Of a stretch of DNA of 58,812 bases, positions 46,945-58,812 are shown piece by piece. Source of the DNA: Solirubrobacterales bacterium (GTDB lineage Bacteria > Actinomycetota > Thermoleophilia > Solirubrobacterales > Solirubrobacteraceae); contig JAFAWR010000367.1 in the NCBI GenBank assembly GCA_019241635.1, forward strand, positions 1 through 58,812. Direction: 5' to 3'. The position numbers were made by a program, and so were the translations under genes. The notes beneath the pieces were generated by a model. It was not told the origin of the DNA. It saw only the letters and a program-made list of their open reading frames with translations, and made no database searches. The number at the start of each line of letters is the position of its first letter. Positions within the stretch are counted from its first letter, which is position 1.

Positions 46945-47676
46945 GGCCAGCGGCAGGAAATCGCGCCGGAGCACGGCCATCGTCGCCCGGCTGGCGTGCA
47001 CCGATACGTTCAGGGCAGCGGTCACCGACCCGGAGGGGCCGCGCAATGGGACCGCCAGCGAACGCAGTCCTTCCTCGAGCTCCTGGTCGGTCGCCGCGTA
47101 ACCCTGCCGCCGGACCGCGGCCAGCGTGGTTCGCAGGGCGTCCTTGTCCGTGACCGTCCGTGACGTCAGCGGCGTGATCTGAATCCTGCTCAAGCGCTCC
47201 TCGAGCTCGTCGTCGGGCAGGCCGGCCAGCAGCACCCGGCCCATCGAGGTGACGAAGGCCGGCAGGCGAGTTCCCACCGCGAGCGTGATGCTCATGATCC
47301 GCCGGGTCGGCACCCGCGCGACGTATATGACGTCGGTGTCGTCGAGCACCGAGATCGAGCACGACTCGTTGACCTTGGCCACCAGGCTCTCCATGTGCGG
47401 CAGGGCCACCTCGGGCAGGCTGAGGCTCGAGAGGTAGGCGTAGCCCAACTCGAGCACGCGTGGGCGCAGCGAGAAGCGGCCCTGCGAGAAGTTGACGTAG
47501 CCGAGCTTGACCAGCGTGAGCAGGAAGCGCCGCGCGGCGGCCCGGGTCAGCCCGGTCGATCGCGCCACCTCGCTGAGGGCGAGCTCGCGGTGCTCGGCGT
47601 CGAAGGCCCTGATGACCGCCAGGCCCCTCTCCAGGGACTGCACGAAATCCGAGTTCTGTGCTGGTTTGTCCGCCAT
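46861..47676 (-). CDS. IclR-family transcriptional regulator (PcaR/PobR-like)
   Basis: 271 aa from the ATG at 47674-47676 (MADKPAQNSDFVQSLERGLA). The winged helix is SLERGLAVIRAFDAEHRELA, then LSEVARSTGLTRAAARRFLL and TLVKLGYVNF. The C-terminal effector domain has SCSISVLDDTDVIYVARVPT and ITLAVGTRLPAFVTSMGRVL, typical of the PcaR/PobR/CatR group that senses aromatic-pathway intermediates. It is divergent from benzoylformate decarboxylase. A 15-bp dyad lies 10 nt upstream of its start, with related dyads before the CoA-transferase genes, so it likely controls both and itself. Confidence 0.92.
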   Translation of the reverse strand: MADKPAQNSDFVQSLERGLAVIRAFDAEHRELALSEVARSTGLTRAAARRFLLTLVKLGYVNFSQGRFSLRPRVLELGYAYLSSLSLPEVALPHMESLVAKVNESCSISVLDDTDVIYVARVPTRRIMSITLAVGTRLPAFVTSMGRVLLAGLPDDELEERLSRIQITPLTSRTVTDKDALRTTLAAVRRQGYAATDQELEEGLRSLAVPLRGPSGSVTAALNVSVHASRATMAVLRRDFLPLALRTAAAIEEDLRGTGDRRSSSFALPQP

Positions 47677-47685
47677 CGCGCGTTC

Positions 47686-47700
47686 GTTCGGTATGCGAAC
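47686..47700. promoter_or_regulatory. Candidate IclR operator (GTTCG-N5-CGAAC)
   Basis: GTTCGGTATGCGAAC is a perfect dyad with 5-bp arms, centred 17 nt upstream of the IclR start and 74 nt upstream of the decarboxylase start. It matches GTTCACGATGCGAAC at 57439-57453 at 12 of 15 positions. IclR regulators commonly bind 15-bp dyads of this type. That this regulator binds here is inference. Confidence 0.6.
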
Positions 47701-47766
47701 ATTACCGGAGTTTGCGGCGCGGCCGCCGCCGCTCACCCCCACCACCGCCGAGTAGGATCCTCCGGG

Positions 47767-49419
47767 ATGAGCCAGACCACCGGCGTGGATCCCGCGGCTC
47801 GGCAGGGCAACGGGAGGGGCGAGGGGCTGAGCGGGCGAACGGTTCGCGACGCCGCCTTCGAGGTCATGCGCCGGCACGGCCTGACCACGATCTTCGGCAA
47901 CCCGGGCTCGACCGAGATCCCCTTCCTGACCGACCTGCCGGGGGATTTGCAGTTCGTGCTGGGCCTGCACGAAGGGTCCGTGGTAGGGATGGCGTCAGGG
48001 TTTGCCTTGGCCCGCGGCGAGCCCGCCTTCGTCAACCTACACACCGCGGCCGGGTTGGGCAACGCGATCAACGCGATCGCCAACGCGCGCGACTGCCGCG
48101 CCCCCCTGGTCATCGTGGTCGGCCAGCAGGACCGCCGGCAGATCGCCTTCGAGCCGTTTCTGACCGGGCGCGCGTTGGAGCGGTTGGCCGGCGAGTATCC
48201 GGTGTGGCGCGTGCTGCCCAGCCGCGCCCAGGACGTGCCGGGCGCGATCGCCCGCGCCTGGCACGAGGCGATGGCCGCGCGCGGTCCGGCGCTGGTCGTG
48301 GTGCCGATGGGCGATTGGCTCGAGCCGGCCGACGAGTCCGCCGCCGGGTCGCCGGCGCGGGTGGTGCGGCCGGTGTCCGTCGCCGCCTCCGAGGTGGAGG
48401 AGCTGGCCGATCTACTGGCCGACGCCGAGGCGCCGGCGCTCGTGGTCGGCGCGCCCGAGCCCTCTGACTGGGACGCCGTGGTCGCGCTCGCCGAGCGCCT
48501 GGGTTGCCCGGTGTGGCAGGAGCCGTTCAGCCGCCGCGTCGGCTTTCCCCAGGACCACCGCCTGTTCGCCGGGCACATGCCCTGGCAGCGTCGGCTCATG
48601 CACGACACGCTGGCGCGCTATGACCTGGTGCTCGCGGTCGGCACCAATGCCTTCCGCGCCTATCTGTTCGACGAGCCGGTCGGGTTGGTCGAGTCTTCGA
48701 CCCGCGTCGCGGTGCTGACCGCGGATCCGGCCGAGGCGCATCGGAGTCCGTGTGACCTCGCCGTCGTCGCGCCGGTGGGCCCGAGTTGTCGCGCGCTGCT
48801 CGAGATCGTGCCCGAGCGCCGGGCCGGCAATCCGCCCGAGCCGATGCGCCGGGCCGCGCCACTGGCGGCGCCGGCCCCCGGGGAGCCGCTGCGCCCCGGG
48901 CATGTGCTGGACGCGCTGGCCGCGCGTCTGCCCGAGGACGTGTTGCTGATCGAGGAGTGTCCCTCGAGCCAGCCCGAGCTCTACCAGCGCATCCCCGTGC
49001 GCGTGCCGTTCGGGTTCCTGAGCACGGCCAACGGCTGCCTGGGGTTCGGGCTGGCCGGCTCGATCGGCCTGCGCATGGGGCTTCCCGACCGTCCGGTCGT
49101 CGCCGTCCTCGGCGACGGCTCGACCATGTACGCGATCCAGGCGCTGTGGAGCGCCGCCCGGTACGACGTCGGCGTGCTGCTCGTGGTCCTGGCCAACGGC
49201 CGCTACGCGGTCATGGATGGCCTGGCCCGGCGCGCCGGGGCGGCGGCCGCGTGGCCGGGCTTCGATTCGGTCGACATCGGCGCGATCGCCCGTGGGCTGG
49301 GCTGCCCGTCGGTGCGCGTGGAGACGTACTCGCAACTGATGTCCACGCTCGATGATGTGATCCCCGGCCTGGCCGGGCGGGGTGAGCCGTTGCTGCTGGA
49401 AGCGGTGGTCGGGGAGTAG
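47767..49419 (+). CDS. mdlC: Benzoylformate decarboxylase-like ThDP enzyme
   Basis: 550 aa thiamine-diphosphate decarboxylase. GLTTIFGNPGSTEIPFLTDL with VLGLHEGSVVGMASGFALAR supplies the activating Glu, and PAFVNLHTAAGLGNAINAIA holds the His (His70 in the Pseudomonas putida enzyme) that marks benzoylformate decarboxylase rather than other ThDP decarboxylases. VVAVLGDGSTMYAIQALWSA and LVVLANGRYAVMDGLA form the GDG...N cofactor motif. It would turn benzoylformate into benzaldehyde in mandelate or phenylglyoxylate breakdown, although neither mandelate dehydrogenase nor benzaldehyde dehydrogenase is in the window. The dioxygenase gene follows after 5 nt. Confidence 0.82.
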   Translation: MSQTTGVDPAARQGNGRGEGLSGRTVRDAAFEVMRRHGLTTIFGNPGSTEIPFLTDLPGDLQFVLGLHEGSVVGMASGFALARGEPAFVNLHTAAGLGNAINAIANARDCRAPLVIVVGQQDRRQIAFEPFLTGRALERLAGEYPVWRVLPSRAQDVPGAIARAWHEAMAARGPALVVVPMGDWLEPADESAAGSPARVVRPVSVAASEVEELADLLADAEAPALVVGAPEPSDWDAVVALAERLGCPVWQEPFSRRVGFPQDHRLFAGHMPWQRRLMHDTLARYDLVLAVGTNAFRAYLFDEPVGLVESSTRVAVLTADPAEAHRSPCDLAVVAPVGPSCRALLEIVPERRAGNPPEPMRRAAPLAAPAPGEPLRPGHVLDALAARLPEDVLLIEECPSSQPELYQRIPVRVPFGFLSTANGCLGFGLAGSIGLRMGLPDRPVVAVLGDGSTMYAIQALWSAARYDVGVLLVVLANGRYAVMDGLARRAGAAAAWPGFDSVDIGAIARGLGCPSVRVETYSQLMSTLDDVIPGLAGRGEPLLLEAVVGE

Positions 49420-49424
49420 GCCGG

Positions 49425-50351
49425 ATGGCGAGCACCGGCACGCGCAAGACCACGCCGGCCGACATCACCGCCGCCGCGGTGGCCAGCTTCGAGGGCTGTG
49501 CCGATCCGCGCCTGCGCGAGCTCATGCAGTCGCTGGTCCGCCACCTGCATGGCTTCGCGACCGAGGTGGGGCTCACCGAGGAGGAGTGGCGCGAGATGAT
49601 CGTGACGCTCACCGCGACCGGGCACATCACCGACGCGCGCCGGCAGGAGTTCATCCTGTGGTCCGACTCCCTCGGCCTGTCGATGTTGGTCGACGCGCTG
49701 GCCCACGCGCTGCCCCCAGGTGCCACCGAGTCGACCGTGCTGGGTCCGTTCTACGTGCCCGGGGCGCCCCAGCGCTCGTATGGAGAGAGCATGGTCGTGG
49801 AACCCGGCGCCGGTATCCCGGCCTGGGTCTACGGGCGCGTCCTTGACGTCTCGGGCGCGCCGATCGCCGGCGCCGAGCTCGACGTGTGGCAGAACGGAGC
49901 CGACATGCTCTACGCCGTCCAGCGCCCGGAGGCCGAGGAGGACCATCTGCGCGGGCGCTATCTGACCCGGGAGGACGGGTCCTACGCGTTCGTGGCCGTG
50001 CGCCCGGTGCCCTACCCGATCCCGGACGACGGCCCGGTCGGGCGGATGCTCTCCGCCACCGGCCGCCACCCCTGGCGTCCGGCGCACATCCACATGATCG
50101 TGCGCGCGTCGGGCTACAAGACGGTCACCACCCACGTGTTCGACGCGGTGAGCGAGTACCTGGATTCCGATGCGGTGTTCGCGGTCAAGCCCTCCCTGTT
50201 CAGGACCTTCGTCGAGCGCTCACCCGATGATCCCGAGCGCCCGCCCAGCGTCGACGGAGAGTGGGTGTCGCTGGAGAACGACATCGTGCTCGCGCGGGCC
50301 GAGGACGGCGAGGACGGTGGCGCGGTGGTCGACCCCGGCCGTACCGCGTGA
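49425..50351 (+). CDS. Intradiol ring-cleavage dioxygenase, hydroxyquinol/catechol 1,2-dioxygenase type
   Basis: 308 aa. The helical N-terminal dimerisation domain of catechol-type intradiol enzymes is present (RLRELMQSLVRHLHGFATEV, EFILWSDSLGLSMLVDAL). The catalytic beta-sandwich has the Fe(III) ligands in order: DMLYAVQ (Tyr), VPYPIPDDGP (Tyr) and RHPWRPAHIHMIV (two His). ESTVLGPFYVPGAP is closer to hydroxyquinol and chlorocatechol enzymes than to plain catechol 1,2-dioxygenases, so cleavage of hydroxyquinol to maleylacetate is my first guess. Either product would feed 3-oxoadipate and so the CatI/CatJ transferase downstream. Confidence 0.88.
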   Translation: MASTGTRKTTPADITAAAVASFEGCADPRLRELMQSLVRHLHGFATEVGLTEEEWREMIVTLTATGHITDARRQEFILWSDSLGLSMLVDALAHALPPGATESTVLGPFYVPGAPQRSYGESMVVEPGAGIPAWVYGRVLDVSGAPIAGAELDVWQNGADMLYAVQRPEAEEDHLRGRYLTREDGSYAFVAVRPVPYPIPDDGPVGRMLSATGRHPWRPAHIHMIVRASGYKTVTTHVFDAVSEYLDSDAVFAVKPSLFRTFVERSPDDPERPPSVDGEWVSLENDIVLARAEDGEDGGAVVDPGRTA

Positions 50352-50470: not shown

Positions 50471-50545
50471 GTCGGCTTACCCCTGGTCAGCGGTGATCTC
50501 ATCACCCCTTGACAGACCCTTCCGCCACCAGCTACCTTGTGGTGC

Positions 50546-50893
50546 ATGGTAGCGATCGGCGACGGCGTGATCTCCCAGCTACGGCGCGGCGTCCTCGAGT
50601 TCTGCGTGCTCGCGCTGTTGCGAGACGACGAGCGCTACGGCTTCGAGATCGTGCGCACGCTGTCCGAGGCCGACGGCCTGGTGACCACCGAGGGCACGGT
50701 GTATCCGCTGCTCGCCCGGCTGCGCAAGGAGGGCGTGGTCGAGACGACATGGCGGGAATCGTCGTCCGGGCCGCCGCGCCGCTACTACCGGCTCACGCCG
50801 ACGGGTCGCTCGCTCCTGAACGCGTTCGCCGCGGAATGGGTGCGGTTTCGCGACTCGGTTGACACCCTGCTGGAGACGGGAGCGCTGACGTGA
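50546..50893 (+). CDS. PadR-family transcriptional regulator
   Basis: 115 aa from the ATG at 50546; an in-frame TTG at 50537 is less likely. The N-terminal winged helix is LRRGVLEFCVLALLRDDERY-GFEIVRTLSEA, then TVYPLLARLRKEGVVETTW and RRYYRLTPTGRSLL, the PadR signature. PadR proteins repress genes in response to phenolics or other ligands. The stop overlaps the start of the HAAS-domain membrane protein (GTGA). This PadR + membrane-protein pair is a widespread two-gene module, so it need not be tied to the aromatic genes around it. Confidence 0.92.
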   Translation: MVAIGDGVISQLRRGVLEFCVLALLRDDERYGFEIVRTLSEADGLVTTEGTVYPLLARLRKEGVVETTWRESSSGPPRRYYRLTPTGRSLLNAFAAEWVRFRDSVDTLLETGALT

Positions 50894-51471
50894 CGACCAC
50901 GACCCTGCATCCACTCGCGACCGATTACCTGGACCGGCTCGAGCGCGCGGCACACCGGCTCCCGCGCGGCGACCGGCGTGAGCTGCTCGAGGAGATCACC
51001 GCCCACCTCTCCGAGGCAACTCATCCCGGCATGTCCGACGCCGAGATGCTCACCGTCCTCGACCGCCTTGGCGACCCGGAAGACATCGTCGAGGCGCAGC
51101 GGCCGGACCAACCCGTGGCGCGGCGCGGTCCGGGTGCGGTCGAATGGCTGACCATCCTCCTGCTGCTGTTCGGCGGATTCCTCGTCTACGTCGGCTGGAT
51201 CGCCGGCGCGGTGATGCTCTGGGGCTCGCGCGCCTGGGGGGTGCGCGAGAAGCTGATCGGCACGCTCATCGTCCCGGGTGGGCTCGCGACCGCGCTCGTG
51301 TCGACGCTGGTCCTCGGTACGACCCAGAACTGCGTGAGCTCATTCGGTGGTCCGGAGCGGTGCACCGGCGGCCCGAGCTCCGTCCACGCCATCATCACGG
51401 TCGCGGTCTTCGCCTTCCTGGTGATCGGACCGCTGTGCTCCGCGGTGTATCTGGCGCGCCGGGCCAGGTAG
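50890..51471 (+). CDS. HAAS-domain (DUF1700-like) membrane protein paired with PadR
   Basis: 193 aa. The N-terminal ~75 residues form the small helical HAAS-type domain (LATDYLDRLERAAHRLPRGD, RRELLEEITAHLSEATHPGM, VLDRLGDPEDIVEAQR), which in known cases follows PadR genes and is thought to sense or sequester. Three to four membrane helices follow (WLTILLLLFGGFLVYVGWIA, LIGTLIVPGGLATALVSTLV, AIITVAVFAFLVIGPLCSAV). The GTG start at 50890 overlaps the PadR stop, so the proteins are made together. Probably a membrane signalling partner of the PadR protein. Confidence 0.82.
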   Translation: MTTTTLHPLATDYLDRLERAAHRLPRGDRRELLEEITAHLSEATHPGMSDAEMLTVLDRLGDPEDIVEAQRPDQPVARRGPGAVEWLTILLLLFGGFLVYVGWIAGAVMLWGSRAWGVREKLIGTLIVPGGLATALVSTLVLGTTQNCVSSFGGPERCTGGPSSVHAIITVAVFAFLVIGPLCSAVYLARRAR

Positions 51472-51547: not shown

Positions 51548-52234
51548 ATGGTTGACGAAATTGTCAACAATCCCACCGCCAACCGCCCGACGACCCCCGA
51601 GGACCGGCTGCGCGAGGCGATCGTCACTGGCCGATTTCAGCCCTCGGAGCGCCTGATCGAGGTCGATGTGGCGCGGGAGCTCGGCGTTGGCCGCTCCGCG
51701 GTCCGGACCGCGCTGGCCCGGCTCGAGCACGAGGGTCTGATCGAGCACGAGCGCCACCGAGGCGCCCGCGTCCGGCTGGTCAGCGCCAAGGAGGCGGTGG
51801 AGATCCTCGAGACCCGTGCCGTGCTCGAGGGCGTGGCCGCCCGCCACGCGGCCAGGAACGCCTCGCCAGACGATGTCGCGCGGCTCCAAGGCATCCTGGA
51901 GGGGATGCGCCAGCGCCTCGACGGCGGGGATCTACTCGGTGCCTCCGATGAGAACGCCGTTCTCCACGGGCGCATCCTGGAGATCTCCCATCACGGCACC
52001 GTGACCCGTCTGATCGCCACGCTCAAGTCACAGCTCAAGTCACAGCTCGTGCGTTTCCAGTACCGCACGATCCTCCTGCCCGGCCGCAGCGAGCACTCGT
52101 TCGGCGAGCACGCGTCGATCGTCGACGCGATCGCCGCCGGTGACGCGCCCGCCGCCGAGGCCGCCATGCGCACTCATCTCTCTCACGTCGCCGAGGCCCT
52201 TCGGGGCGAGGCCGCCGGGGGTCTGTCCCGGTGA
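51548..52234 (+). CDS. GntR-family (FCD subfamily) transcriptional regulator
   Basis: 228 aa. The winged helix is DRLREAIVTGRFQPSERLIE, then VDVARELGVGRSAVRTALAR and LEHEGLIEHERHRGARV. The FCD effector domain covers ~90-220 (ETRAVLEGVAARHAARNASP, SEHSFGEHASIVDAIAAGDA), with metal-binding His and Asp positions typical of FadR-type proteins that sense carboxylates. It is the first gene of a seven-gene coupled unit; its TGA overlaps the next GTG. A dyad, ATTGTCAACAAT, lies inside its own first codons, pointing to autoregulation. KSQLKSQL comes from a 12-bp tandem duplication. Confidence 0.9.
   Translation: MVDEIVNNPTANRPTTPEDRLREAIVTGRFQPSERLIEVDVARELGVGRSAVRTALARLEHEGLIEHERHRGARVRLVSAKEAVEILETRAVLEGVAARHAARNASPDDVARLQGILEGMRQRLDGGDLLGASDENAVLHGRILEISHHGTVTRLIATLKSQLKSQLVRFQYRTILLPGRSEHSFGEHASIVDAIAAGDAPAAEAAMRTHLSHVAEALRGEAAGGLSR
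51560..51571. promoter_or_regulatory. Candidate GntR operator inside the start of its own gene
   Basis: ATTGTCAACAAT is a dyad with 5-bp arms around CA and overlaps the wider pair TTGAC (51552-51556) / GTCAA (51563-51567). It covers codons 5-8 (IVNN). FCD-type GntR sites are often TTGT-N2-ACAA-like, which this matches. Binding here would block early elongation or initiation of the whole operon. Confidence 0.5.
52022..52045 (+). repeat. 12-bp tandem duplication in the GntR gene
   Basis: CTCAAGTCACAG occurs twice head to tail without a single difference, adding four residues (KSQL) to a helix of the effector domain while keeping the frame. Identical copies suggest a recent slippage event. Confidence 0.85.
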
Positions 52235-53154
52235 GCGACGAGCGGCCGTCGGACCGCGCGCGCGAGCTTCTCCGCGGCGCCTACGACACCCACATGCACA
52301 TCTCGCCCGACGTGGTCGAGCGCAAGATCGACGACCTCACGCTGGCTCGCAAGTTCGCCGAGCTCGGGATGGCCGGGTTCGTGCTGAAGTCCCACTACGG
52401 ATCCACCGCCGAGCGCGCCAGCGTCGTCCGCGCCGCCGTTCCGGGCGTCGACGCGCTCGGCGCGATCGCGCTGAACCGCGCCGTCGGTGGGATCAACCCG
52501 CTGGCCGTCGAGATCGCCGCCCGGGAGGGCGCCCGGACCGTCTGGCTGCCCACGGTCGACAGCGTGAACGAGTCCCACGAGCGCGAAGCGCCGCCTGGCG
52601 CCAAGGTCCCGGTGTGGGTCAAGCTCCAGCTCGACCTGCGCGAGCAGGGCATCGAGATCCCCCCGGTACCGGTGATCGATCCCAGCGACGGGACCGTCCT
52701 GCCCGAGCTCAGAGAGGTGCTCGGCCTGATCGCCCGGCACAACATGCTGCTGGCCACCGGCCACCTGAGCCGGGACGAGATCTTCGCCGTGGTCGACGCC
52801 GCGCTCGAGGCCGGGGTCCGCGACATCGTGATCACCCACCCCGAGTTCCCCTCGCAGGACCTGAGCGTCGAGGACCAGCGCGAGCTCGCGCAGCGCGGCG
52901 CGCTGCTCGAGCGCTGCTTCACCACGCCGCACACCGGCAAGGTCACGTGGGAGCAGTGGATCGAGAACATCCGCGCCGCCGGACCCGAGCATTCGGTGCT
53001 GTCCACCGACCTCGGTCAGGTGTTCAACCCGCCGGTCGAGGACGGCATGGCCCTGATGGTCGACCGACTGCTCGCGGCCGGCTTCACCGACGAGGAGGTA
53101 TACGTAATGGCGGTCGTGAACACGCGCATCGTGGCCGGGGCGGAAGCTCTGTGA
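52231..53154 (+). CDS. DUF6282-like amidohydrolase-superfamily protein
   Basis: 307 aa from the GTG at 52231, overlapping the GntR stop. The protein looks like a metal-dependent TIM-barrel hydrolase: GAYDTHMHISPDVVERKI (His21-x-His23), FVLKSHYGSTAER (Lys/His), LATGHLSRDEI (His), RDIVITHPEFPSQDLSVEDQ (His) and HSVLSTDLGQVFNP (Asp). I place it in the DUF6282 family from memory of this pattern. Its job is unknown. In this operon it could hydrolyse a lactone formed from the ring-cleavage product, as LigI does for 2-pyrone-4,6-dicarboxylate; that is inference from position and fold. It is coupled to galB by GTGA. Confidence 0.7.
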   Translation: MSDERPSDRARELLRGAYDTHMHISPDVVERKIDDLTLARKFAELGMAGFVLKSHYGSTAERASVVRAAVPGVDALGAIALNRAVGGINPLAVEIAAREGARTVWLPTVDSVNESHEREAPPGAKVPVWVKLQLDLREQGIEIPPVPVIDPSDGTVLPELREVLGLIARHNMLLATGHLSRDEIFAVVDAALEAGVRDIVITHPEFPSQDLSVEDQRELAQRGALLERCFTTPHTGKVTWEQWIENIRAAGPEHSVLSTDLGQVFNPPVEDGMALMVDRLLAAGFTDEEVYVMAVVNTRIVAGAEAL

Positions 53155-53867
53155 GTGCCCGCAAGCTGATGGTCATCGGTGCCCACTCGGCCGACTTCGT
53201 GTGGCGCGGCGGGGGCGCCTGCGCAGTGACCACGACCAACGGCGGAAGCGCGAAGGTGATCGCCCTCTCCTATGGCGAGCGCGGCGAGTCCGGCGAGCTG
53301 TGGAAAGAGGAAGGCCAGACGATCGAGAACGTCAAGAAGATCCGCCACGGCGAGGCGGCACGCGCCGCCGAAGCGCTCGGCGCATCCTTCGAGTGCCTGG
53401 ACCTGGGCGACTACCCCCTGGACATCGACACCGACGGCCTCAACCTCATCTCGGAGAAGATCCGCGAGTTCGGCCCCGACGTGCTGATCACCCACACCGA
53501 CACCGACCCGTTCAACCCCGACCATCCGATCGCCTACGCCGCGGTCAACCGGGCCCGTGGCCTGGCCGCCGGCGCCGGCGTGTCGAGCGCGTTCAAGACC
53601 ATCGCCCCGCCGGCGTTCTATCTGTTCGAGCCCCACCAGCCCGAGCTGTGCAACTTCACCCCGAACACGTTCCTCGACATCACGCACGTGATGGACGCCA
53701 AGCGCACGGCCATGCAGGAGATGAAGGCGCAGAAGTATCTGCAGACCTATTACGACCAGCGAGCCGATCACCGCGGCAACCACGCTCGCCGTTCGTCGGG
53801 CAATCAGGACATCCGACAGGCTGAGGCCTTCCAGCGGGTAACCCCGAACGTGGTGAGCGCACTGTGA
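53151..53867 (+). CDS. galB: 4-oxalomesaconate hydratase, GalB-type (PIG-L family)
   Basis: 238 aa from the GTG at 53151. GalB adds water to 4-oxalomesaconate to give 4-carboxy-4-hydroxy-2-oxoadipate in the gallate and protocatechuate 4,5-cleavage pathways. It belongs to the zinc PIG-L fold but reads GAHSADFVWRGGG instead of AHPDDE, as in Pseudomonas GalB (His12, Asp15 here). LSYGERGESGELWKEE, CLDLGDYPLDI, HTDTDPFNPDHPIAYA (His125) and FYLFEPHQPELCNFTPNTFL are further segments specific to this enzyme as opposed to GlcNAc deacetylases. It is followed, with a GTGA overlap, by the next enzyme of the pathway. Confidence 0.88.
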   Translation: MSARKLMVIGAHSADFVWRGGGACAVTTTNGGSAKVIALSYGERGESGELWKEEGQTIENVKKIRHGEAARAAEALGASFECLDLGDYPLDIDTDGLNLISEKIREFGPDVLITHTDTDPFNPDHPIAYAAVNRARGLAAGAGVSSAFKTIAPPAFYLFEPHQPELCNFTPNTFLDITHVMDAKRTAMQEMKAQKYLQTYYDQRADHRGNHARRSSGNQDIRQAEAFQRVTPNVVSAL

Positions 53868-54490
53868 GCGCCGAGCAGACTTACGACGAACTGGCGCAGC
53901 TCGGATCCGCCACGGTCTACGAGGCGGGCGGACGCCGGGGCTACATCGACGCGGACCTGACGCAGGTCGTCCCCGGCTCGCGCGTGGCCGGGCCGGCGCG
54001 CACCGTGCGCTGCGGCCAGGACGACAACCTGATGGTCCATGCGGCGATGGCCGCGGTTCAGCAGGGCGACGTGCTGGTGCTGACCATGCCCGAGCCACGG
54101 CCGGTGGCGCTGGTCGGCGACCTCCTCGCCACCCAGGCCAAGGCCCAGGGCGCCGCGGCGATCCTCGTCGACGCGTCGGTGCGCGACGTCGAGGAGCTGG
54201 CCGAGCTGGGGCTGCCGATTTGGGCGCGCTGGGTTCGGGTCAAGGGCGCCGACAAGGAGGCTGTCGGGGCGATCGGTGAGCCGGTCACCGTGGGGGGCGC
54301 CAGGATCCGCACCGGCGACATCCTCGTCCTGGACGCCGACGGCGTTGCCGTGGTCGAGCACGAGCGCGTCTCCGAGGTGCTCGAGGCGTCCCGAGAGCGC
54401 CTGGAGCGCGAGCGCGTCAAGCGCGAGAAGCTCCAGGACGGCGCTCTTTCCTACGACCTCGACGGCCTTCGTGAGAAAGTTGAGGCGTGA
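53864..54490 (+). CDS. galC: 4-carboxy-4-hydroxy-2-oxoadipate aldolase/oxaloacetate decarboxylase (GalC/LigK, RraA fold)
   Basis: 208 aa class II pyruvate aldolase of the RraA/HMG-aldolase family. It splits 4-carboxy-4-hydroxy-2-oxoadipate into pyruvate and oxaloacetate. LAQLGSATVYEAGGRRGYID is the N-terminal signature, VALVGDLLATQAKAQGAAAI is the G-D-x-x-x-x-x-A stretch that binds pyruvate and metal, and LVDASVRDVEELAEL contains the D-x-x-x-R-D metal and Arg site. RraA itself (an RNase E inhibitor) is shorter (~160 aa) and lacks the C-terminal helices present here (ERLERERVKREKLQDGALSY). Placement directly after galB supports the aldolase call. GTG start. Confidence 0.87.
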   Translation: MSAEQTYDELAQLGSATVYEAGGRRGYIDADLTQVVPGSRVAGPARTVRCGQDDNLMVHAAMAAVQQGDVLVLTMPEPRPVALVGDLLATQAKAQGAAAILVDASVRDVEELAELGLPIWARWVRVKGADKEAVGAIGEPVTVGGARIRTGDILVLDADGVAVVEHERVSEVLEASRERLERERVKREKLQDGALSYDLDGLREKVEA

Positions 54491-55503
54491 CCGAGCCGAT
54501 CCTCGACCTCGCCCACATTGCCCACGCCGAGCTGCTCACCCCGTTCCCCGAGGACAGCCTGCGCTTCTTCGTCGAGCTGTTCGGCATGGAGATCGAGCAC
54601 CGCGAGGGACAGTCGGTCTTCCTGCGGGGCTGGGGGGAGTACCAGCCTTACGGCCTGAAGCTGACCGAGTCGGAGCTGCCCGGCCTGGGCCACATGGCGA
54701 TCCGGGCCTGGAGCCCCGAGTCCCTGCAGCGCCGCGTCGATGCGATCGGGCGGACCGGATACGGCATCGGCTGGAACGAGGGAGACCACGGCCACGGACC
54801 CGCCTTCGAGTTCACCGACCCCGACGGGCACCGCTTAGAGATCTTCTTCGAGCAGGATCGCTACGTCCCGCCTGAGCATCTGCGCCCTCGGCTTAAGAAC
54901 GTCCCGCAGCGCCACGTCGATCGGGGTGCGGCGGTCAAGCGGATCGACCACGTCAACGTCCTCGCCTCCGATGTGGCGGCCAACCGCCGCTTCGCCGTCG
55001 AGCAGCTCGGCTACCGCCTCTATGAGCAGATCATCAATGACGACGGGTCCGAGCAGGGGGCGTGGATGAGCCTGTCGATTGCCGCGCACGAGCTGATCTA
55101 CACCGCCGACCACGCCGGCGCGGCCGGTCGCCTGCACCACCTGGCCTGGTTCGTCGACACCCGCGAGGAGATCCTCCGCGCGGCCGACCTGTTCGTCGAC
55201 GCCGACGTCCCGATCGAGGCCGCCCCGTCCAAGCACGCCGTGGCCCAGGGTATGTTCCTCTACGTGTACGAGCCGGGCGGCAACCGCGTCGAGGTGACGA
55301 CCGGCACTCACTTCATCTTCGACCCGGCCTACGAGCCCGTGAGATGGACCCAGGCCGAGCGGGCCCGGGGTCAGGCCTGGGGGGTCAAGACGATCGAGAC
55401 CTTCCACACCTACGGCACCCCGGACGTGAGCGGCCGCCCGCCCGGGCCGCCGATCCCGCCGACCAGCCAGATCCCGGCCATCCCCGACGCCACGGTGGTA
55501 TGA
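54487..55503 (+). CDS. Extradiol ring-cleavage dioxygenase, type I (VOC superfamily)
   Basis: 338 aa, two VOC modules. The N-terminal module (~5-125) has lost the metal set. The C-terminal module (~150-285) keeps it: RIDHVNVLASDVAANRR (His155), GRLHHLAWFVDT (His217/218) and MFLYVYEPGGNRVEVTTG (Glu269). The last stretch fits the extradiol dioxygenase signature from L-Y-x-x-E-P-x-G to the ligand Glu. Type I enzymes such as catechol 2,3-dioxygenase open catechols next to the hydroxyls with Fe(II) or Mn(II). A ~50-residue Pro-rich tail ends the protein. The start is GTG, overlapping galC. The substrate is open; see findings. Confidence 0.85.
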   Translation: MTEPILDLAHIAHAELLTPFPEDSLRFFVELFGMEIEHREGQSVFLRGWGEYQPYGLKLTESELPGLGHMAIRAWSPESLQRRVDAIGRTGYGIGWNEGDHGHGPAFEFTDPDGHRLEIFFEQDRYVPPEHLRPRLKNVPQRHVDRGAAVKRIDHVNVLASDVAANRRFAVEQLGYRLYEQIINDDGSEQGAWMSLSIAAHELIYTADHAGAAGRLHHLAWFVDTREEILRAADLFVDADVPIEAAPSKHAVAQGMFLYVYEPGGNRVEVTTGTHFIFDPAYEPVRWTQAERARGQAWGVKTIETFHTYGTPDVSGRPPGPPIPPTSQIPAIPDATVV

Positions 55504-56174
55504 AGACCACCGAGTCGGTGAGCGGGGACCGGCTGCTCATCCGCGACCTGGTCGAGAACTGGGCGGTTTGGCGCGACGCCGGCGACTGGGAGCGCTTCGC
55601 CACGGTCTGGCACGACGACGGCTTCATGATGGCCACCTGGTTCCAGGGCCCGGCGCGCGAGTTCATCCGGGTCAGCCGCGAGGGATTCGAGCGCGGCGTG
55701 AGCATCCTCCACTTCCTCGGCGGCACCTCGATCGACCTGGCGGCTGAGGCGCCGCCGTCAGGCGCGGCCGACCTTCGCCCTTCCGGCCGCCGCGCGATCG
55801 CCCAGACCAAGATGACCATCTCCCAGCGCGCCGCGGTACACGGCGTGGAGTGCGACGTCCTGTGCACGGGGCGCTTCTACGACTTCCTCGAGCGTCGGAG
55901 CGGGCGCTGGGGCATCGTCCTGCGCCAGCCCATCTACGAGAAGGACCGGCTCGATCCGCTTGACCCGGCGGCGAGCCTCGCCCTCGACGCCGAGCTCCTG
56001 GACAGCCTTCCGGGCGGCTACCGTCACCTGGCCTATGTCCAGTCCCACATCGGGTTCGAGGTCAAGCGCGACATGCCCGGGCTGACCGGCCCGGCCGTCG
56101 AGCGCCTGTACCGTCGCGGCGCCGACTGGCTCGCCGGAGGCGAGCTCGGCGATCCGCTGAAGACGGTCGATTGA
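55500..56174 (+). CDS. NTF2/SnoaL-like protein in the aromatic operon
   Basis: 224 aa from the ATG at 55500 (ATGA overlap). The first ~150 residues show the NTF2-like cone fold: DRLLIRDLVENWAVWRDAGD, WERFATVWHDDGFMMATWFQ, HFLGGTSIDL, AIAQTKMTISQRAAVHGVEC and CTGRFYDFLERRSGRWGIVL. Relatives include SnoaL-type hydratases/cyclases and small subunits of ring-hydroxylating dioxygenases, but no Rieske large subunit is near. The C-terminal ~70 residues (SLPGGYRHLAYVQSHIGFEV, ERLYRRGADWLAGGELGDP) are an extension also found in single-subunit homologues. It may be an isomerase or hydratase for a ring-cleavage product. Confidence 0.72.
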   Translation: MKTTESVSGDRLLIRDLVENWAVWRDAGDWERFATVWHDDGFMMATWFQGPAREFIRVSREGFERGVSILHFLGGTSIDLAAEAPPSGAADLRPSGRRAIAQTKMTISQRAAVHGVECDVLCTGRFYDFLERRSGRWGIVLRQPIYEKDRLDPLDPAASLALDAELLDSLPGGYRHLAYVQSHIGFEVKRDMPGLTGPAVERLYRRGADWLAGGELGDPLKTVD

Positions 56175-57379
56175 GCCGCTTTCACATCCAGCGGCCGCGG
56201 TCCTCGGTGCTGCTGGCCATCGGCATGGTGCTGCTGGCCACCAACCTGCGACCGGCCGCCGCGGCGATCGGCCCGCTGATCGACCGGATCAAATCCGACA
56301 CCGGCCTCTCGGCCACCGGCGCCGGCGCCCTGACCACGCTGCCGGTCCTGTGCTTCGGCGCGCTGGCGCCACTCGCGCCGGCGCTGGCCCGGCGGCTCGG
56401 CGAACGCACCACCGCGGCGCTGGCCCTGGTCGTGCTGTTGACCGGCACGCTGGTGCGGCTCGTGCCCGGGCTCGGCTTCCTGTTCCTCGGCACCGCGCTC
56501 GCCGGCGCGGCGATCGCGGTCGGCAACGTCCTCTTGCCCGTGCTCGTCCGCGGCAACTTCCCCGACCGGATCGGTCCGCTCACCAGCATGTACACCACCG
56601 CGCTCGTGGGCTTCGCGGCGCTCTCCGCGGGGGTGTCGGTGCCGGTGGCCGATGCGCTCGGCGGCGGCTGGCGGCCCGGTCTGGCGATCTGGGCCGTGCC
56701 GGCGGTGATCGCGCTGATCGTCTGGGCACCACAACTCGGGCGCCGGAGCCCCGCGCGCCCGGCGCCCGGAACCCCGGTGGTCAGCGTCCGCTCCCTGCTG
56801 CGCGACCCCGTGGCCTGGGCGGTCACGCTGTTCTTCGCCCTTCAGTCGGCCGGCTTCTACGCCACGCTGGCCTGGCTGCCCAGCGTGTTCCACAGCCACG
56901 GGCTGAGCACCTCTCACGCCGGCTTCCTGCTCAGCCTGTCGCTCATCTTCGGCCTGATTCCCGCCCTGACCGTCCCGTCGCTGGCCGCCCGGGCCAGCCA
57001 CCAGCGGCAGTTCGTCCTGGTGTTCGTTGCGTTCATCGCCGCGGGATGGATCGGGGTGCTCACCGCCCCGACCTCCGTGCCCTATCTGTGGGTGGTGCTG
57101 CTCGGGATCGGGCAGAACGCGATGTTCCCCCTGGCCCTGACCTTGATCGTGCTGCGCGGTGGGTCGGTCACGAGCACGGGCGCGCTGTCCACGATGGTTC
57201 AGACGTTCGGATATCTGATCGCGGCGGCCGGGCCGCTGGTGATCGGGGCCGTGCACGACATCAGTGGCTCCTGGACGCCCCCTTTGCTCGTGCTCCTGGC
57301 CCTGCTCGTGCCCCAGACGGTCATCGGGCTCGAAGCGGCGCGCAACCGCACGGTGAGCCCACCGCACGCGTCCGTTTAA
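56171..57379 (+). CDS. MFS transporter, CynX/NimT-like
   Basis: 402 aa, 12 helices. It starts at TTG (56171, TTGA overlap). VLLAIGMVLLATNLRPAAAA-IGPLIDRIKSDTGLSATGAG is the characteristic N-terminus of CynX/NimT-type carriers (helix 1 with the NLRPA motif). ALAPLAPALARRLGERTTAA is the loop 2-3 motif. Members move cyanate, 2-nitroimidazole or organic anions. As the last gene of the GntR-galB-galC operon it is a good candidate for uptake of the aromatic acid. No other carrier is in the island. Confidence 0.85.
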   Translation: MSRFHIQRPRSSVLLAIGMVLLATNLRPAAAAIGPLIDRIKSDTGLSATGAGALTTLPVLCFGALAPLAPALARRLGERTTAALALVVLLTGTLVRLVPGLGFLFLGTALAGAAIAVGNVLLPVLVRGNFPDRIGPLTSMYTTALVGFAALSAGVSVPVADALGGGWRPGLAIWAVPAVIALIVWAPQLGRRSPARPAPGTPVVSVRSLLRDPVAWAVTLFFALQSAGFYATLAWLPSVFHSHGLSTSHAGFLLSLSLIFGLIPALTVPSLAARASHQRQFVLVFVAFIAAGWIGVLTAPTSVPYLWVVLLGIGQNAMFPLALTLIVLRGGSVTSTGALSTMVQTFGYLIAAAGPLVIGAVHDISGSWTPPLLVLLALLVPQTVIGLEAARNRTVSPPHASV

Positions 57380-57468: not shown

Positions 57469-58287
57469 TTGGCTGAGCTGATGCCCCTCGGCGACGCCGT
57501 CGCCGAGCTCGTACACGACGGGGACGCGGTCGCGCTCGAGGGCTTCACGCACCTGATCCCGTTCGAAGCGGGGCACGAGATCATCCGGCAGGGCCGCCGC
57601 GATCTCGAGCTGATCCGGATGACCCCTGACCTGCTCTACGACCAGATGATCGGGATGGGGGTGGCCCGCCGGCTGGTCTTCTCCTATGGCGGCAATCCTG
57701 GCGTCGGTGGGCTGCACCGGTTCCGCGACGCGATCGAGAACGACTGGCCCCACCAGGTCGAGATCGAGGAGCACAGCCATGCCGGCATGGCCAACCGGTA
57801 CGCCGCCGGCGCGGCCGACATGCCCTGCGCGATCATGCGCGGCTACGTCGGCACCGACCTGATGGCGAAAACCACCGTGGCGCCGATCACCTGTCCGTTC
57901 ACCGGCGAGACGCTGACCGCCGTGCCCGCCCTGCGTCCCGATGTGGCGATCGTCCACGCCCAGGAAGCCGACCGCGACGGCAACGTGCAGCTATGGGGGA
58001 TACCGGGGGTTCAGAAGGAGGCCGTCCTGGCCGCTCAGCGCTCGCTGGTCACGGTCGAGCGGATCGTCGACGAGCTTCAGCTGAGGCCCGGCGGGATGCT
58101 GATCCCCGAGTGGGTGATCTCGGCGGTGGCCGAAGCCCCCGGCGGTTCCCGTCCCTCCTACAGCCTCGGGATCACCGATCGCGACAACGACTTCTACAAG
58201 TTCTGGGACAAGATGAGCCGCGACCGCGATCAGTTCACCGAGTGGATGAAGGAGAACGTCCTGGGTAAGGAGTTGTCCACCCCATGA
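57469..58287 (+). CDS. catI: 3-oxoadipate CoA-transferase subunit A (CatI-like)
   Basis: 272 aa. Together with subunit B it moves CoA from succinyl-CoA to 3-oxoadipate, the step before thiolysis in the beta-ketoadipate pathway. Segments match CatI: VALEGFTHLIPFEAGHEIIR, RMTPDLLYDQMIGMG, SYGGNPGVGGLHRFRDAIEN, EIEEHSHAGMANRYAAGAAD and CPFTGETLTAVPALRPDVAI. It is the class I transferase alpha subunit and carries no catalytic Glu. The start is TTG at 57469 with AGGGG upstream; ATG at 57481 is an alternative. Related IpdA enzymes act on steroid rings, so the substrate is probable rather than proven. Confidence 0.88.
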   Translation: MAELMPLGDAVAELVHDGDAVALEGFTHLIPFEAGHEIIRQGRRDLELIRMTPDLLYDQMIGMGVARRLVFSYGGNPGVGGLHRFRDAIENDWPHQVEIEEHSHAGMANRYAAGAADMPCAIMRGYVGTDLMAKTTVAPITCPFTGETLTAVPALRPDVAIVHAQEADRDGNVQLWGIPGVQKEAVLAAQRSLVTVERIVDELQLRPGGMLIPEWVISAVAEAPGGSRPSYSLGITDRDNDFYKFWDKMSRDRDQFTEWMKENVLGKELSTP

Positions 58288-58812
58288 CGATGCAGGCGAG
58301 CTCCACGGACGCCGCCGAGGCGACCGCCGGCGAGATCCAGACGATCGTCGCGGCCCGGCGTCTGCGCAACACCAAGACGGTGTTCATCGGCGTCGGTCGC
58401 CCGAGCACGGCGGCGCTGCTGGCCCGCATGGTCCACAACCCCGAGCTGATCCTGGTCTACGAGTCGGGAACCATCGGCGCCAAGCCGTTCCACATCCCGC
58501 TCTCGATCGGCGACGGCGAGCTGGCCGAGACCGCCGACTCGATCGTGTCGGTGCCCGAGATGTTCAACTACTGGATCGGCGCCGGCCGGATCGACGTGGC
58601 CTTCCTGGGTGCGGCGCAGATCGACCGCCACGCGAACCTGAACTCGACCGTGATCGGTTCCTACGAGCATCCCAAGACGCGCCTCCCCGGAGCCGGTGGC
58701 GCGCCCGAGATCGCCGCCAGCTGCGGCGAGGTGATCGTGATCGCGCCCCACGCCAAGCGCACGTTTGTGAAGAAGCTCGACTTCGTGACCACGGTCGGGC
58801 ACGGCGACGGTC
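58284..58812 (+). CDS. catJ: 3-oxoadipate CoA-transferase subunit B (CatJ-like), partial
   Basis: 176 codons are visible and the frame is open at the window edge. It starts at the ATG at 58284, overlapping the catI stop (ATGA). NPELILVYESGTIGAKPFHI holds the catalytic Glu (ESG) that forms the glutamyl-CoA intermediate. GVGRPSTAALLARMVHNPEL, LPGAGGAPEIAASCGEVIVI and KLDFVTTVGHGDG match CatJ closely. The missing part should be about 75-85 residues. Pairing with catI completes the enzyme that the dioxygenase branch of the island needs. Confidence 0.88.
   Translation, partial: MTMQASSTDAAEATAGEIQTIVAARRLRNTKTVFIGVGRPSTAALLARMVHNPELILVYESGTIGAKPFHIPLSIGDGELAETADSIVSVPEMFNYWIGAGRIDVAFLGAAQIDRHANLNSTVIGSYEHPKTRLPGAGGAPEIAASCGEVIVIAPHAKRTFVKKLDFVTTVGHGDG

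What the first reader, a model, noticed from the sequence alone, without database searches (positions are those of the whole stretch)
51548..57379. Seven-gene, fully translationally coupled aromatic operon led by GntR
Seen directly: GntR, DUF6282-like, GalB, GalC, VOC dioxygenase, NTF2-like and MFS genes follow each other with a 4-nt stop/start overlap at every one of six junctions (GTGA four times, ATGA once, TTGA once). GalB and GalC catalyse consecutive steps of the gallate/protocatechuate 4,5-cleavage lower pathway. Such strict coupling implies that the three unassigned proteins work in the same route. I infer a compact, perhaps undescribed, meta-cleavage module in which DUF6282 and NTF2-like proteins supply the tautomerase, lactonase or hydratase steps.
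Basis: partly seen in the sequence, partly recalled or inferred. Interest (0 to 1): 0.72.

Follow-up and report, generated by a model that had tools for sequence, protein, structure and literature searches.

The report
Alternative gallate/protocatechuate ring-cleavage operon
A soil actinobacterium carries a tightly packed seven-gene operon that appears to break down plant-derived aromatic acids with unusual replacement enzymes for the ring-opening and follow-up steps, plus a likely decarboxylase whose characterised relatives are fungal.

Summary
GntR-DUF6282-GalB-GalC-VOC is a recurring module (Solirubrobacterales, Rubrobacter, Thermus/Meiothermus, Thermomicrobium, Armatimonadota). Relatives of the VOC protein lie near 4-oxalomesaconate tautomerase, LigJ, LigK, LigI, 4-hydroxybenzoate hydroxylase, LigM-like O-demethylases and, in Agrobacterium, a tannase. 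I infer that VOC is a type I (VOC-fold) gallate/protocatechuate 4,5-dioxygenase standing where type II LigAB/GalA normally stands, and that DUF6282, a predicted metal-binding TIM barrel, stands in for the lactonase LigI (or tautomerase GalD) upstream of GalB and GalC. The NTF2-like protein is not core (3 of 80 DUF6282 loci): it is a homologue of fungal gallate/protocatechuate decarboxylases (AGDC1/PPP2) that keeps dyad and substrate residues but lacks the essential potassium-site glutamate; elsewhere it mostly lies by hydroxyquinol-pathway genes, and such a dioxygenase lies just upstream here. Counter-evidence: one VOC locus (Roseomonas) and the window's own genome also hold type II dioxygenases. 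Nothing was assayed.

The parts
51548..52234 (+). GntR-family regulator with FCD domain
   Evidence: PF07729 E 2e-27 and PF00392 E 4e-13; GntR relatives within 5 kb of DUF6282 in 40 of 80 loci
51561..51570 (.). candidate GntR operator TTGTCAACAA over the start of its own gene
   Evidence: only TTGT-N(1-3)-ACAA in the window; such a site within 350 nt of a GntR or DUF6282 start in 23 of 87 loci; 24 sites there against 2.2 expected from the density elsewhere in the same loci; the loci are related
52231..53154 (+). DUF6282 protein, predicted metal-dependent hydrolase-type TIM barrel; proposed stand-in for PDC lactonase LigI or tautomerase GalD
   Evidence: PF19799 E 8e-66; AF2 pLDDT 95.8; Foldseek matches amidohydrolase-type barrels incl. 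2ffi at rank 6; H21, H23, K53, H55, H178, H203, E227, D260 invariant in 48 sequences
53151..53867 (+). GalB: PIG-L-type 4-oxalomesaconate hydratase
   Evidence: PDB 5cgz E 2.3e-57 over residues 5-235
53864..54490 (+). GalC: 4-carboxy-4-hydroxy-2-oxoadipate aldolase
   Evidence: NF006731 186.3 bits, cut-off 179; TIGR02798 174, cut-off 304.5 not met
54487..55503 (+). VOC-fold (type I) extradiol dioxygenase, proposed gallate/protocatechuate 4,5-dioxygenase
   Evidence: PDB 9wgj E 2e-107; metal ligands H, H, E and catalytic H, Y kept; below the catechol 2,3-dioxygenase equivalog cut-off
55500..56174 (+). NTF2-like homologue of fungal gallate/protocatechuate decarboxylases AGDC1/PPP2
   Evidence: PDB 7jmr E 1e-25, 6w54 E 3e-23; Foldseek 7jmv TM 0.82
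56171..57379 (+). MFS transporter, CynX/NimT type (TTG start)
   Evidence: TIGR00896 366 bits, below its cut-off 406
49425..50351 (+). hydroxyquinol 1,2-dioxygenase-like intradiol enzyme, possible partner of the NTF2-like protein
   Evidence: PDB 3n9t PnpC E 4e-85, 8r2x E 9e-75, 1tmx E 4e-74; relatives at the same place in L056 and L057, not seen in L061
47395..49419 (+). thiamine-diphosphate enzyme (benzoylformate decarboxylase-like by my reading; true start probably internal)
   Evidence: PF02775, PF02776, PF00205
57469..58287 (+). CoA-transferase subunit A; subunit B follows from about 58296 and is cut by the contig end
   Evidence: PF01144; conserved beside the operon in L056

Best explanation
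The five-gene core GntR-DUF6282-GalB-GalC-VOC is a 4,5- (meta-) cleavage pathway for gallate and/or protocatechuate built from non-orthologous parts. Inferred flow: the VOC-fold dioxygenase opens gallate (or protocatechuate) to 4-oxalomesaconate (OMA) or, through ring closure or a DUF1932 dehydrogenase found in sister loci, to 2-pyrone-4,6-dicarboxylate (PDC); DUF6282 hydrolyses the lactone (LigI slot) or equilibrates OMA tautomers (GalD slot); GalB hydrates OMA; GalC cleaves the product to pyruvate and oxaloacetate. GntR probably acts through a TTGT-N2-ACAA site at its own start. NTF2 and MFS are a lineage-specific addition: NTF2 is probably a cofactor-free hydroxybenzoate decarboxylase that diverts substrate to the adjacent hydroxyquinol branch (intradiol enzyme 49425-50351, CoA-transferase 57469 on). 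Shown: gene content, homology, synteny, conserved active sites, conserved coupling. Inferred: every substrate, product and direction of flow.
For: GalB/GalC identity. Module recurrence: of the best 80 of 198 DUF6282 relatives, 46 have GalB+GalC downstream, 30 also VOC, 25 in the order DUF6282-GalB-GalC-VOC; also six f18 genomes and Thermus oshimai. VOC tied to the OMA route without DUF6282: GntR-GalB-GalC-GalD-VOC-MFS in L146 (family f25); L149 the same without GalB; GalD passes its cut-off in both (494 and 491 bits, cut-off 440); L147 and L148 have the same spacing, GalD not tested. GalB-VOC-GalC-GalD followed by a tannase/feruloyl esterase in A. tumefaciens pAt, same four in A. vitis (94) and Thioclava (98); DUF1932-VOC-MFS-LigJ (2gwg E 3e-189) with ligK about 4 kb on in Methylobacterium. 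DUF6282 in the LigI slot: DUF1932 oxidoreductase within 5 kb of DUF6282 in 34 of 80 loci; in Roseomonas the homologous DUF1932 gene directly follows a true LigI (4d8l E 5e-77). Enzymes that make protocatechuate or demethylate lignin acids lie near some modules: PobA in Thermus/Meiothermus, LigM/DesA-like in Rubrobacter, Thermomicrobium, Armatimonadota (8 and 5 of 80 loci within 5 kb for LigM and PobA; the Rubrobacter protein hits LigM 5x1i at E 3e-138, below both NCBIfam equivalog cut-offs). Gal-linked VOCs group together (94/82) apart from 3lm4, a non-module copy in a f18 genome, XylE and HPCD, with a near-invariant lid arginine R292 (39/40). NTF2.
Against: No substrate was measured. In Roseomonas the VOC gene follows a LigB-type dioxygenase (NF009902 416 bits, cut-off 299) and a PcaD-like hydrolase, so there protocatechuate may be opened by the type II enzyme and VOC may do something else. 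The window's own genome holds one LigB-type protein on another contig (nearest PDB 8k04 E 2e-29, LigB 1b4u E 7e-25; below all NCBIfam cut-offs). Other GalB-GalC plasmid loci opened (R. opacus, Pantoea, Azospirillum) have no VOC gene listed in the stretch; Azospirillum uses LigAB. 16 of 80 DUF6282 loci have GalB+GalC without VOC; in six of those genomes no LigB domain was found either, so what opens the ring there is unknown. HPCD R243 is not conserved, and the H200 position is His in 12 module VOCs incl. the window but Tyr in 28; K at 294 also occurs in the non-module copy. 32 of 80 DUF6282 loci lack a downstream GalB, 24 of them with an ABC-transporter ATPase within 6 kb: DUF6282 has a life outside this route. 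Structure search ranks dipeptidases above 2ffi. Neither DUF1932 (no positive control) nor GalD was found in the 75%-complete own assembly. VOC scores best on catechol 2,3-dioxygenase models.
Confidence: 0.57

Rival explanations
1. One linear route led by decarboxylation: the NTF2-like enzyme converts protocatechuate or gallate to catechol or pyrogallol, the VOC enzyme cleaves that, and GalB/GalC (relaxed in specificity) hydrate and cleave 2-hydroxymuconate to pyruvate and malonate semialdehyde.
For: NTF2 follows VOC in window, L056, L057, L061, with 4-nt overlaps available in all four; VOC is closest to catechol 2,3-dioxygenase models; window-clade VOCs keep the H200 seen in catechol enzymes.
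Against: 27 of the 30 loci with DUF6282, GalB, GalC and VOC show no NTF2 (four of the 27 contigs end within 700 nt after VOC); VOC relatives sit with GalD, LigJ, LigK and tannase, which need the carboxylated intermediate.
Confidence: 0.15
2. DUF6282 is a 4-oxalomesaconate tautomerase analogue (GalD slot), not a lactonase.
For: In f25 genomes, which gave no DUF6282 match, GalD stands with GntR-GalC-VOC, and GalD was not found in the window's assembly; no dehydrogenase that would make PDC was found there either.
Against: DUF6282 is a metal-site TIM barrel of amidohydrolase type, suited to hydrolysis; it pairs with DUF1932, whose homologue pairs with true LigI in Roseomonas.
Confidence: 0.25
3. 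The operon is a packed cluster in which unrelated genes share a promoter; PIG-L is a deacetylase and the RraA-like protein a ribonuclease regulator.
For: PIG-L and RraA folds have such members; BshB1 and RraA models match below cut-off.
Against: GalB 5cgz is the only PDB sequence hit at E up to 0.001 for the PIG-L protein; the RraA-like protein passes only the NF006731 CHA-aldolase cut-off among ten models; the pair recurs with GalD or VOC in several phyla.
Confidence: 0.04
4. The NTF2-like protein is a scytalone-dehydratase-like dehydratase/aromatase that makes hydroxyquinol from a cyclic polyol, not a decarboxylase.
For: HFLGG motif like scytalone dehydratase, K+-site glutamate lost; in Sinorhizobium it lies near a dehydroquinate dehydratase, a xylose-isomerase-like barrel and enolase-superfamily genes.
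Against: Carboxylate anchor R39, tryptophan clamp W35/W61 and Q192 of AGDC1 are all invariant in 15 bacterial sequences; structure matches PPP2/AGDC1 at TM 0.74-0.82 against about 0.5 for dehydratases.
Confidence: 0.2

Closest known systems
gal cluster of Pseudomonas putida (galTAPDBC; gene order recalled)
   Same: GalB- and GalC-type enzymes; a transporter in the run; VOC relatives elsewhere sit with GalD and a tannase
   Different: GalA is a type II (LigB-type) dioxygenase, here a type I VOC enzyme; GalD replaced or missing; GntR/FCD regulator
Protocatechuate 4,5-cleavage operons of Arthrobacter keyseri / Pseudarthrobacter Sphe3 (PMC8431788, passages read) and Azospirillum
   Same: CHA aldolase and OMA hydratase steps, genes together
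   Different: Type II dioxygenase, PDC hydrolase (pcaC/LigI), CHMS dehydrogenase and (Sphe3) LigJ-type hydratase are replaced by VOC, DUF6282, DUF1932 (sister loci only) and PIG-L
Catechol 2,3-dioxygenase / homoprotocatechuate 2,3-dioxygenase (type I extradiol)
   Same: Two-domain VOC fold, H-H-E metal site, catalytic H and Y
   Different: Below the equivalog cut-offs of both; separate group with its own lid arginine; no catechol meta-pathway genes in the operon
AGDC1 (Arxula) and PPP2 (Madurella) non-oxidative decarboxylases (PMC7862292, passages read)
   Same: Fold, H86-D40 dyad, W35/W61 clamp, R39, T60, Y150, Q192
   Different: E88 (K+ site), R87, D124, D126 lost; R at the Y146 position; bacterial, mostly beside hydroxyquinol genes

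Membership tests
GalB / OMA hydratase (PIG-L type) | Full-length homology to characterised GalB | tested here: met
   5cgz E 2.3e-57, residues 5-235
GalB / OMA hydratase (PIG-L type) | OMA hydratase activity | not testable with these tools
   needs assay
GalC / LigK CHA aldolase | Curated CHA aldolase model above cut-off | tested here: inconclusive
   NF006731 186.3 vs 179 met; TIGR02798 174 vs 304.5 not met
Type I (VOC) extradiol dioxygenase | H-H-E metal triad plus catalytic H and Y | tested here: met
   metal triad, H248 and Y257 in 40 of 40 gal-linked sequences incl. window; H200 in 12 of 40 incl. window
Catechol 2,3-dioxygenase equivalog | TIGR03211 cut-off 320.2 | tested here: not met
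   291.4 bits; a f25 relative just passes at 322.8, so the model does not separate the two groups
Type II gallate/protocatechuate dioxygenase (GalA/LigAB/DesB) | LigB fold (PF02900) | tested here: not met
   window protein is PF00903 only
LigI PDC lactonase | Sequence homology to LigI | tested here: not met
   no PDB hit at E up to 1
LigI PDC lactonase | Amidohydrolase-type barrel and position beside the pathway dehydrogenase and OMA hydratase | tested here: met
   works-like evidence only; DUF1932 not beside it in the window
OMA tautomerase GalD (PrpF) | NF033377 match | tested here: not met
   none in the window operon by family scan or own genome
AGDC1/PPP2 decarboxylase group | H86-D40 dyad, W35/W61 clamp, R39, T60, Y150, Q192 | tested here: met
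   8 of 8 identical in window, invariant in 15 sequences
AGDC1/PPP2 decarboxylase group | E88 potassium site, essential in AGDC1 | tested here: not met
   L73 in window and invariant in 15; hence a sister branch, not filed as a member
AGDC1/PPP2 decarboxylase group | Decarboxylase activity | not testable with these tools
   needs assay

The most novel reading that the evidence does not exclude
A second, almost wholly non-orthologous gallate/protocatechuate 4,5-cleavage pathway exists in deep-branching bacteria, led by a VOC-fold dioxygenase clade that does what LigB-type enzymes are known for, with DUF6282 as its lactonase and DUF1932 as its dehydrogenase; in some Solirubrobacterales it is joined to a bacterial, potassium-site-free branch of the fungal AGDC1-type decarboxylases that sets the split between ring cleavage and the hydroxyquinol route.
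Probability: 0.4. Interest if true: 0.72.

Novelty: new variant of a known kind. Interest (0 to 1): 0.58.

Why it matters
If true, it gives functions to DUF6282 and to a dioxygenase clade now often annotated catechol 2,3-dioxygenase, adds a VOC-fold enzyme to a job credited to LigB-type enzymes, adds heat-loving carriers (Thermus, Meiothermus, Thermomicrobium, Rubrobacter) of lignin-aromatic catabolism, and offers cofactor-free bacterial decarboxylase candidates of the kind sought for muconate production. Each step can be tested with one purified protein.

Tried and rejected
Reading all seven genes as one linear route was rejected because NTF2 tracks hydroxyquinol genes elsewhere. A type II dioxygenase in DUF6282-carrying genomes was sought: LigB domains occur in 11 of 23 genomes/records searched (24 asked for, L080 not held); the 12 without include six (behind L083, L085, L090, L093, L095, L126) whose loci have GalB+GalC but no VOC; hits in the other 11 were not mapped against the loci. 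A catechol 2,3-dioxygenase label was rejected on cut-off, tree and context. DUF6282 by PDB sequence search gave nothing; by structure search many amidohydrolase-type barrels without a clear winner. Before the VOC tree 13 tblastn matches were dropped: nine because the match ran past the stop codon at its end (L056, L057, L065, L072, L088, L147, L148, L154, A. vitis L155), four as too short (L059, L074, L135 twice); so those loci are not placed by the tree. Papers: no held full text has DUF6282; OMA tautomerase, VOC, gallate, tannase, C23O and type I extradiol terms: no paper with three or more; 38 papers with two or more of its terms, 20 listed, none by title on a VOC gallate dioxygenase. AromaDeg (PMC4250580, passages) places gallate dioxygenases and protocatechuate 4,5-dioxygenase in the LigB superfamily; the passages seen do not list them under VOC. 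Subscription literature was not searchable, so absence from print is not shown. PMC8671467 (passages): the short Bacillus C23O had no activity on protocatechuate or pyrogallol. PMC9925492 (passages): the same enzyme lowered the phenolic content of a gallic acid solution by 14% in 6 h, a weak hint that a type I enzyme can act on gallate. PMC12220188 (passages) added nothing. HPCD residue roles (R243, H200, R292), scytalone dehydratase motif, OMA-pathway chemistry and the P. putida gal order are recalled. Sigma-70 scan: 0 promoters, uninformative for this host.


Full report
OBSERVATION. The run 51548-57379 contains seven same-strand ORFs with six 4-nt overlaps, GTGA four times, ATGA once, TTGA once. 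A crude gene map of the window upstream gives 3 four-nt overlaps in 17 same-strand neighbour pairs, so overlaps are common in this genome and six in a row is unusual but not astonishing. The stronger argument is conservation: the closest relative holding the whole run, L056 (Solirubrobacterales MAG, DUF6282 89% identical), again has 4-nt overlaps at all six junctions, with start codons exchanged; L057 has four of five; over eleven relatives 36 of 44 junctions offer a 4-nt overlap (recount). The coupling looks maintained by selection in this lineage.

WHAT THE PROTEINS ARE. GntR carries an FCD domain; DUF6282 matches PF19799 and nothing else; PIG-L, RraA-like, glyoxalase-fold, SnoaL_4 and MFS match their families. 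The PIG-L protein hits one PDB sequence, 4-oxalmesaconate hydratase GalB 5cgz (E 2.3e-57). The RraA-like protein passes the curated CHA-aldolase cut-off of NF006731 but not that of TIGR02798. The VOC protein hits type I extradiol enzymes: 9wgj (deposited as catechol 1,2-dioxygenase, E 2e-107), 7q2a and 3lm4 (about 5e-79), XylE (4e-34) and homoprotocatechuate dioxygenases (1e-32 to 6e-28), yet stays below the catechol 2,3-dioxygenase equivalog cut-off (291 vs 320). The NTF2-like protein hits PPP2 7jmr (E 1e-25) and AGDC1 6w54 (E 3e-23), far ahead of scytalone dehydratase (0.02).

THE CORE MODULE IS WIDESPREAD. In 296 genomes of the phylum, DUF6282 over cut-off occurs in 18, the window's included. 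I fetched the surroundings of the other 17: six genomes of family f18 (Rubrobacter by later named matches, e.g. L070) hold DUF6282-GalB-GalC-VOC in that order, and one of family f24 holds GntR-DUF6282-GalB-GalC; none of the ten distant DUF6282 loci (L024, L032-L040, 33-41% identity) held GalB, GalC or VOC at E 1e-5, though four of them are contigs or pieces of 3-6.3 kb. A scan of the named genome collection with a nine-sequence DUF6282 alignment gave 198 relatives, the best 80 kept (59% identity or more). Within 5 kb: GalB downstream on the same strand 48 of 80, GalB+GalC 46, plus VOC on either side 30, in the order DUF6282-GalB-GalC-VOC 25; DUF1932-type oxidoreductase 34; GntR 40; NTF2 3 (L056, L057, L061); MFS 1; intradiol enzyme 4. 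Twelve loci have under 4 kb downstream. At least two loci repeat genomes (L069/L029, L070/L030), and kept loci are biased to near relatives, so these are not frequencies in nature. VOC-bearing modules occur in Actinomycetota, Deinococcota, Thermomicrobiota and Armatimonadota. Thermus oshimai pTHEOS01 shows the set annotated: catechol 2,3-dioxygenase, GntR, DUF6282, PIG-L, CHA aldolase, NAD(P) oxidoreductase, with 4-hydroxybenzoate 3-monooxygenase close by.

REVERSE TEST. In the same 296 genomes GalB relatives (E up to 1e-30) occur in 13: seven (66% identity or more, window included) lie next to DUF6282 and VOC; one next to DUF6282 only; three next to VOC without DUF6282; two (three loci) with neither. 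VOC relatives (E up to 1e-70) occur in 12 genomes: in ten GalB lies beside, in one (G246) GntR, GalC and GalD without GalB, in one (G154) none of these. Two genomes carry a second VOC copy outside the module; the one examined (L153) groups with 3lm4. On plasmids I opened four VOC-anchored records of 74 (A. vitis, A. tumefaciens, Methylobacterium, Roseomonas) and four GalB-anchored ones of 72 (Thioclava, R. opacus, Pantoea, Azospirillum): VOC with GalB, GalC and GalD in three, VOC with LigJ in one, VOC near LigI in one, GalB without VOC in three.

WHAT THE VOC ENZYME CLEAVES (inference). Its neighbours outside the DUF6282 module name the pathway. L146 (family f25) has GntR-GalB-GalC-GalD-VOC-MFS and L149 the same without GalB; GalD passes the OMA tautomerase cut-off in both; the MFS of L149 is nearest to aromatic acid:H+ symporters, below cut-off. 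A. tumefaciens pAt has PIG-L, VOC, CHA aldolase, OMA tautomerase, then a tannase/feruloyl esterase; A. vitis and Thioclava share the first four. Methylobacterium currus has DUF1932, VOC, MFS, a true LigJ (2gwg E 3e-189) and, some 4 kb on, ligK. GalD, LigJ and GalB all act on OMA, which arises from gallate directly or from protocatechuate via PDC (established pathway knowledge). PobA or LigM/DesA-like genes near other modules make protocatechuate or demethylate vanillate/syringate-type acids. Gal-linked VOCs plus 9wgj group together (94/82, moderate; midpoint root) apart from 3lm4, L153, XylE and HPCD, and carry a lid arginine (window R292, 39 of 40) next to the place of HPCD R292/R293. Against: Roseomonas has a LigB-type dioxygenase and a PcaD-like hydrolase directly before its VOC gene; HPCD R243 has no equivalent; H200 is His in 12 but Tyr in 28 of 40, so subclades may differ; the window's genome has a LigB-type protein of its own on another contig, below all family cut-offs. 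AromaDeg places gallate and protocatechuate 4,5-dioxygenases in the LigB superfamily, so a VOC-fold one would be new to that scheme.

WHAT DUF6282 DOES (inference). The AF2 model is confident (pLDDT 95.8, pTM 0.93) and matches amidohydrolase-type TIM barrels: dipeptidases first, 2ffi (putative PDC hydrolase) at rank 6 with E 3e-7, and phosphotriesterase-like lactonases. H21, H23, K53, H55, H178, H203, E227 and D260 are invariant in 48 sequences, the pattern of a metal-dependent hydrolase. Positionally it pairs with a DUF1932 oxidoreductase; homologues of that oxidoreductase (29-37% identity across phyla) lie directly after a true LigI in Roseomonas (4d8l E 5e-77) and near GalB-VOC-GalC-GalD in Agrobacterium and Thioclava. 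So DUF1932 as CHMS dehydrogenase and DUF6282 as PDC lactonase is the simplest reading; a tautomerase role is the main rival, since GalD stands in DUF6282-free VOC modules and neither GalD nor DUF1932 was found in the window's own 75%-complete assembly. DUF6282 also occurs without GalB (32 of 80), 24 of those with an ABC-transporter ATPase within 6 kb, so it serves something else as well.

WHAT NTF2 DOES (inference). In 15 bacterial sequences the residues matching AGDC1 W35, R39, D40, T60, W61, H86, Y150 and Q192 are invariant; E88, whose mutation kills AGDC1 by removing its potassium site, is Leu throughout, and Y146 is Arg throughout. The model (pLDDT 80, five sequences) matches PPP2 and AGDC1 at TM 0.74-0.82 and the next families at about 0.5. 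The structure paper doubted the lactic-acid-bacterial homologues because the histidine seemed absent; here it is present. Of 32 plasmid records with a relative I opened ten, plus two genome loci: intradiol dioxygenase nearby in 8 of 12, maleylacetate reductase in 7 of 12, no DUF6282, GalB, GalC or VOC in any. The window has a hydroxyquinol 1,2-dioxygenase-like gene 1.2 kb upstream of GntR and a CoA-transferase downstream, so a decarboxylase feeding a hydroxyquinol branch is the best guess; L061 has NTF2 in the module without an intradiol gene in reach, and the exact substrate is open.

REGULATION. TTGTCAACAA at 51561 is the only TTGT-N(1-3)-ACAA in 58.8 kb. In 87 loci (1.374 Mb) there are 55 such sites; 24 of them, in 23 loci, lie within 350 nt of a GntR or DUF6282 start (90.5 kb in all), where 2.2 would be expected from the density outside; the loci are related, so the excess is indicative only.

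VERDICT. Confirmed observation; interpretation right about a meta-cleavage module and about DUF6282/VOC belonging to it, wrong about NTF2 supplying a tautomerase, lactonase or hydratase step. The result is a new variant of the gallate/protocatechuate 4,5-cleavage kind, with two proteins (VOC, DUF6282) apparently in roles held elsewhere by unrelated families, and a bacterial sister branch of the AGDC1-type decarboxylases attached. All biochemistry remains to be done.

Noticed in passing
window 47395-50351: A thiamine-diphosphate decarboxylase-like gene and a hydroxyquinol 1,2-dioxygenase-like gene lie 5 nt apart upstream of the operon, synteny kept in L056 and L057.
   Followed up: partly
window 57469-58812: CoA-transferase subunits A and B follow the operon; B is cut by the contig end, so the cluster may go on.
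   Followed up: partly
L158:6243-11614 (A. tumefaciens pAt): GalB-VOC-GalC-GalD followed by a tannase/feruloyl esterase: a possible gallotannin island with a VOC-fold dioxygenase.
   Followed up: partly
gal-linked VOC alignment, HPCD H200 position: The second-shell catalytic His is Tyr in 28 of 40 gal-linked VOCs and His in 12, including the window.
   Followed up: partly
L157:5055-7972 (Roseomonas gilardii pRo-1): A LigB-type dioxygenase, a PcaD-like hydrolase and a VOC dioxygenase in one run, with LigI-DUF1932 upstream: why both dioxygenase types is unexplained.
   Followed up: partly
L078, L080, L082, L092, L096, L100, L118, L130: Close DUF6282 relatives in Actinoplanes, Actinomadura and Streptomyces lack GalB/GalC; some have DUF1932 and GntR; 24 of 32 GalB-less loci have an ABC-transporter ATPase (my label) within 6 kb: another route may exist.
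   Followed up: partly
PDB 9wgj: Deposited as catechol 1,2-dioxygenase but its sequence is of the VOC-fold extradiol type and falls inside the gal-linked group; the name may be wrong.
   Followed up: no
window 50537-51471: PadR regulator and HAAS-domain protein, also overlapping by 4 nt, sit between the hydroxyquinol dioxygenase and the operon.
   Followed up: no
L050, L051, L053-L055, L137, L139: The bacterial NTF2/AGDC1-like gene accompanies maleylacetate reductase and intradiol dioxygenase, and sometimes a xylose-isomerase-like barrel, on plasmids of Sinorhizobium, Shinella, Agrobacterium, Caballeronia, Rhodococcus and Embleya.
   Followed up: partly
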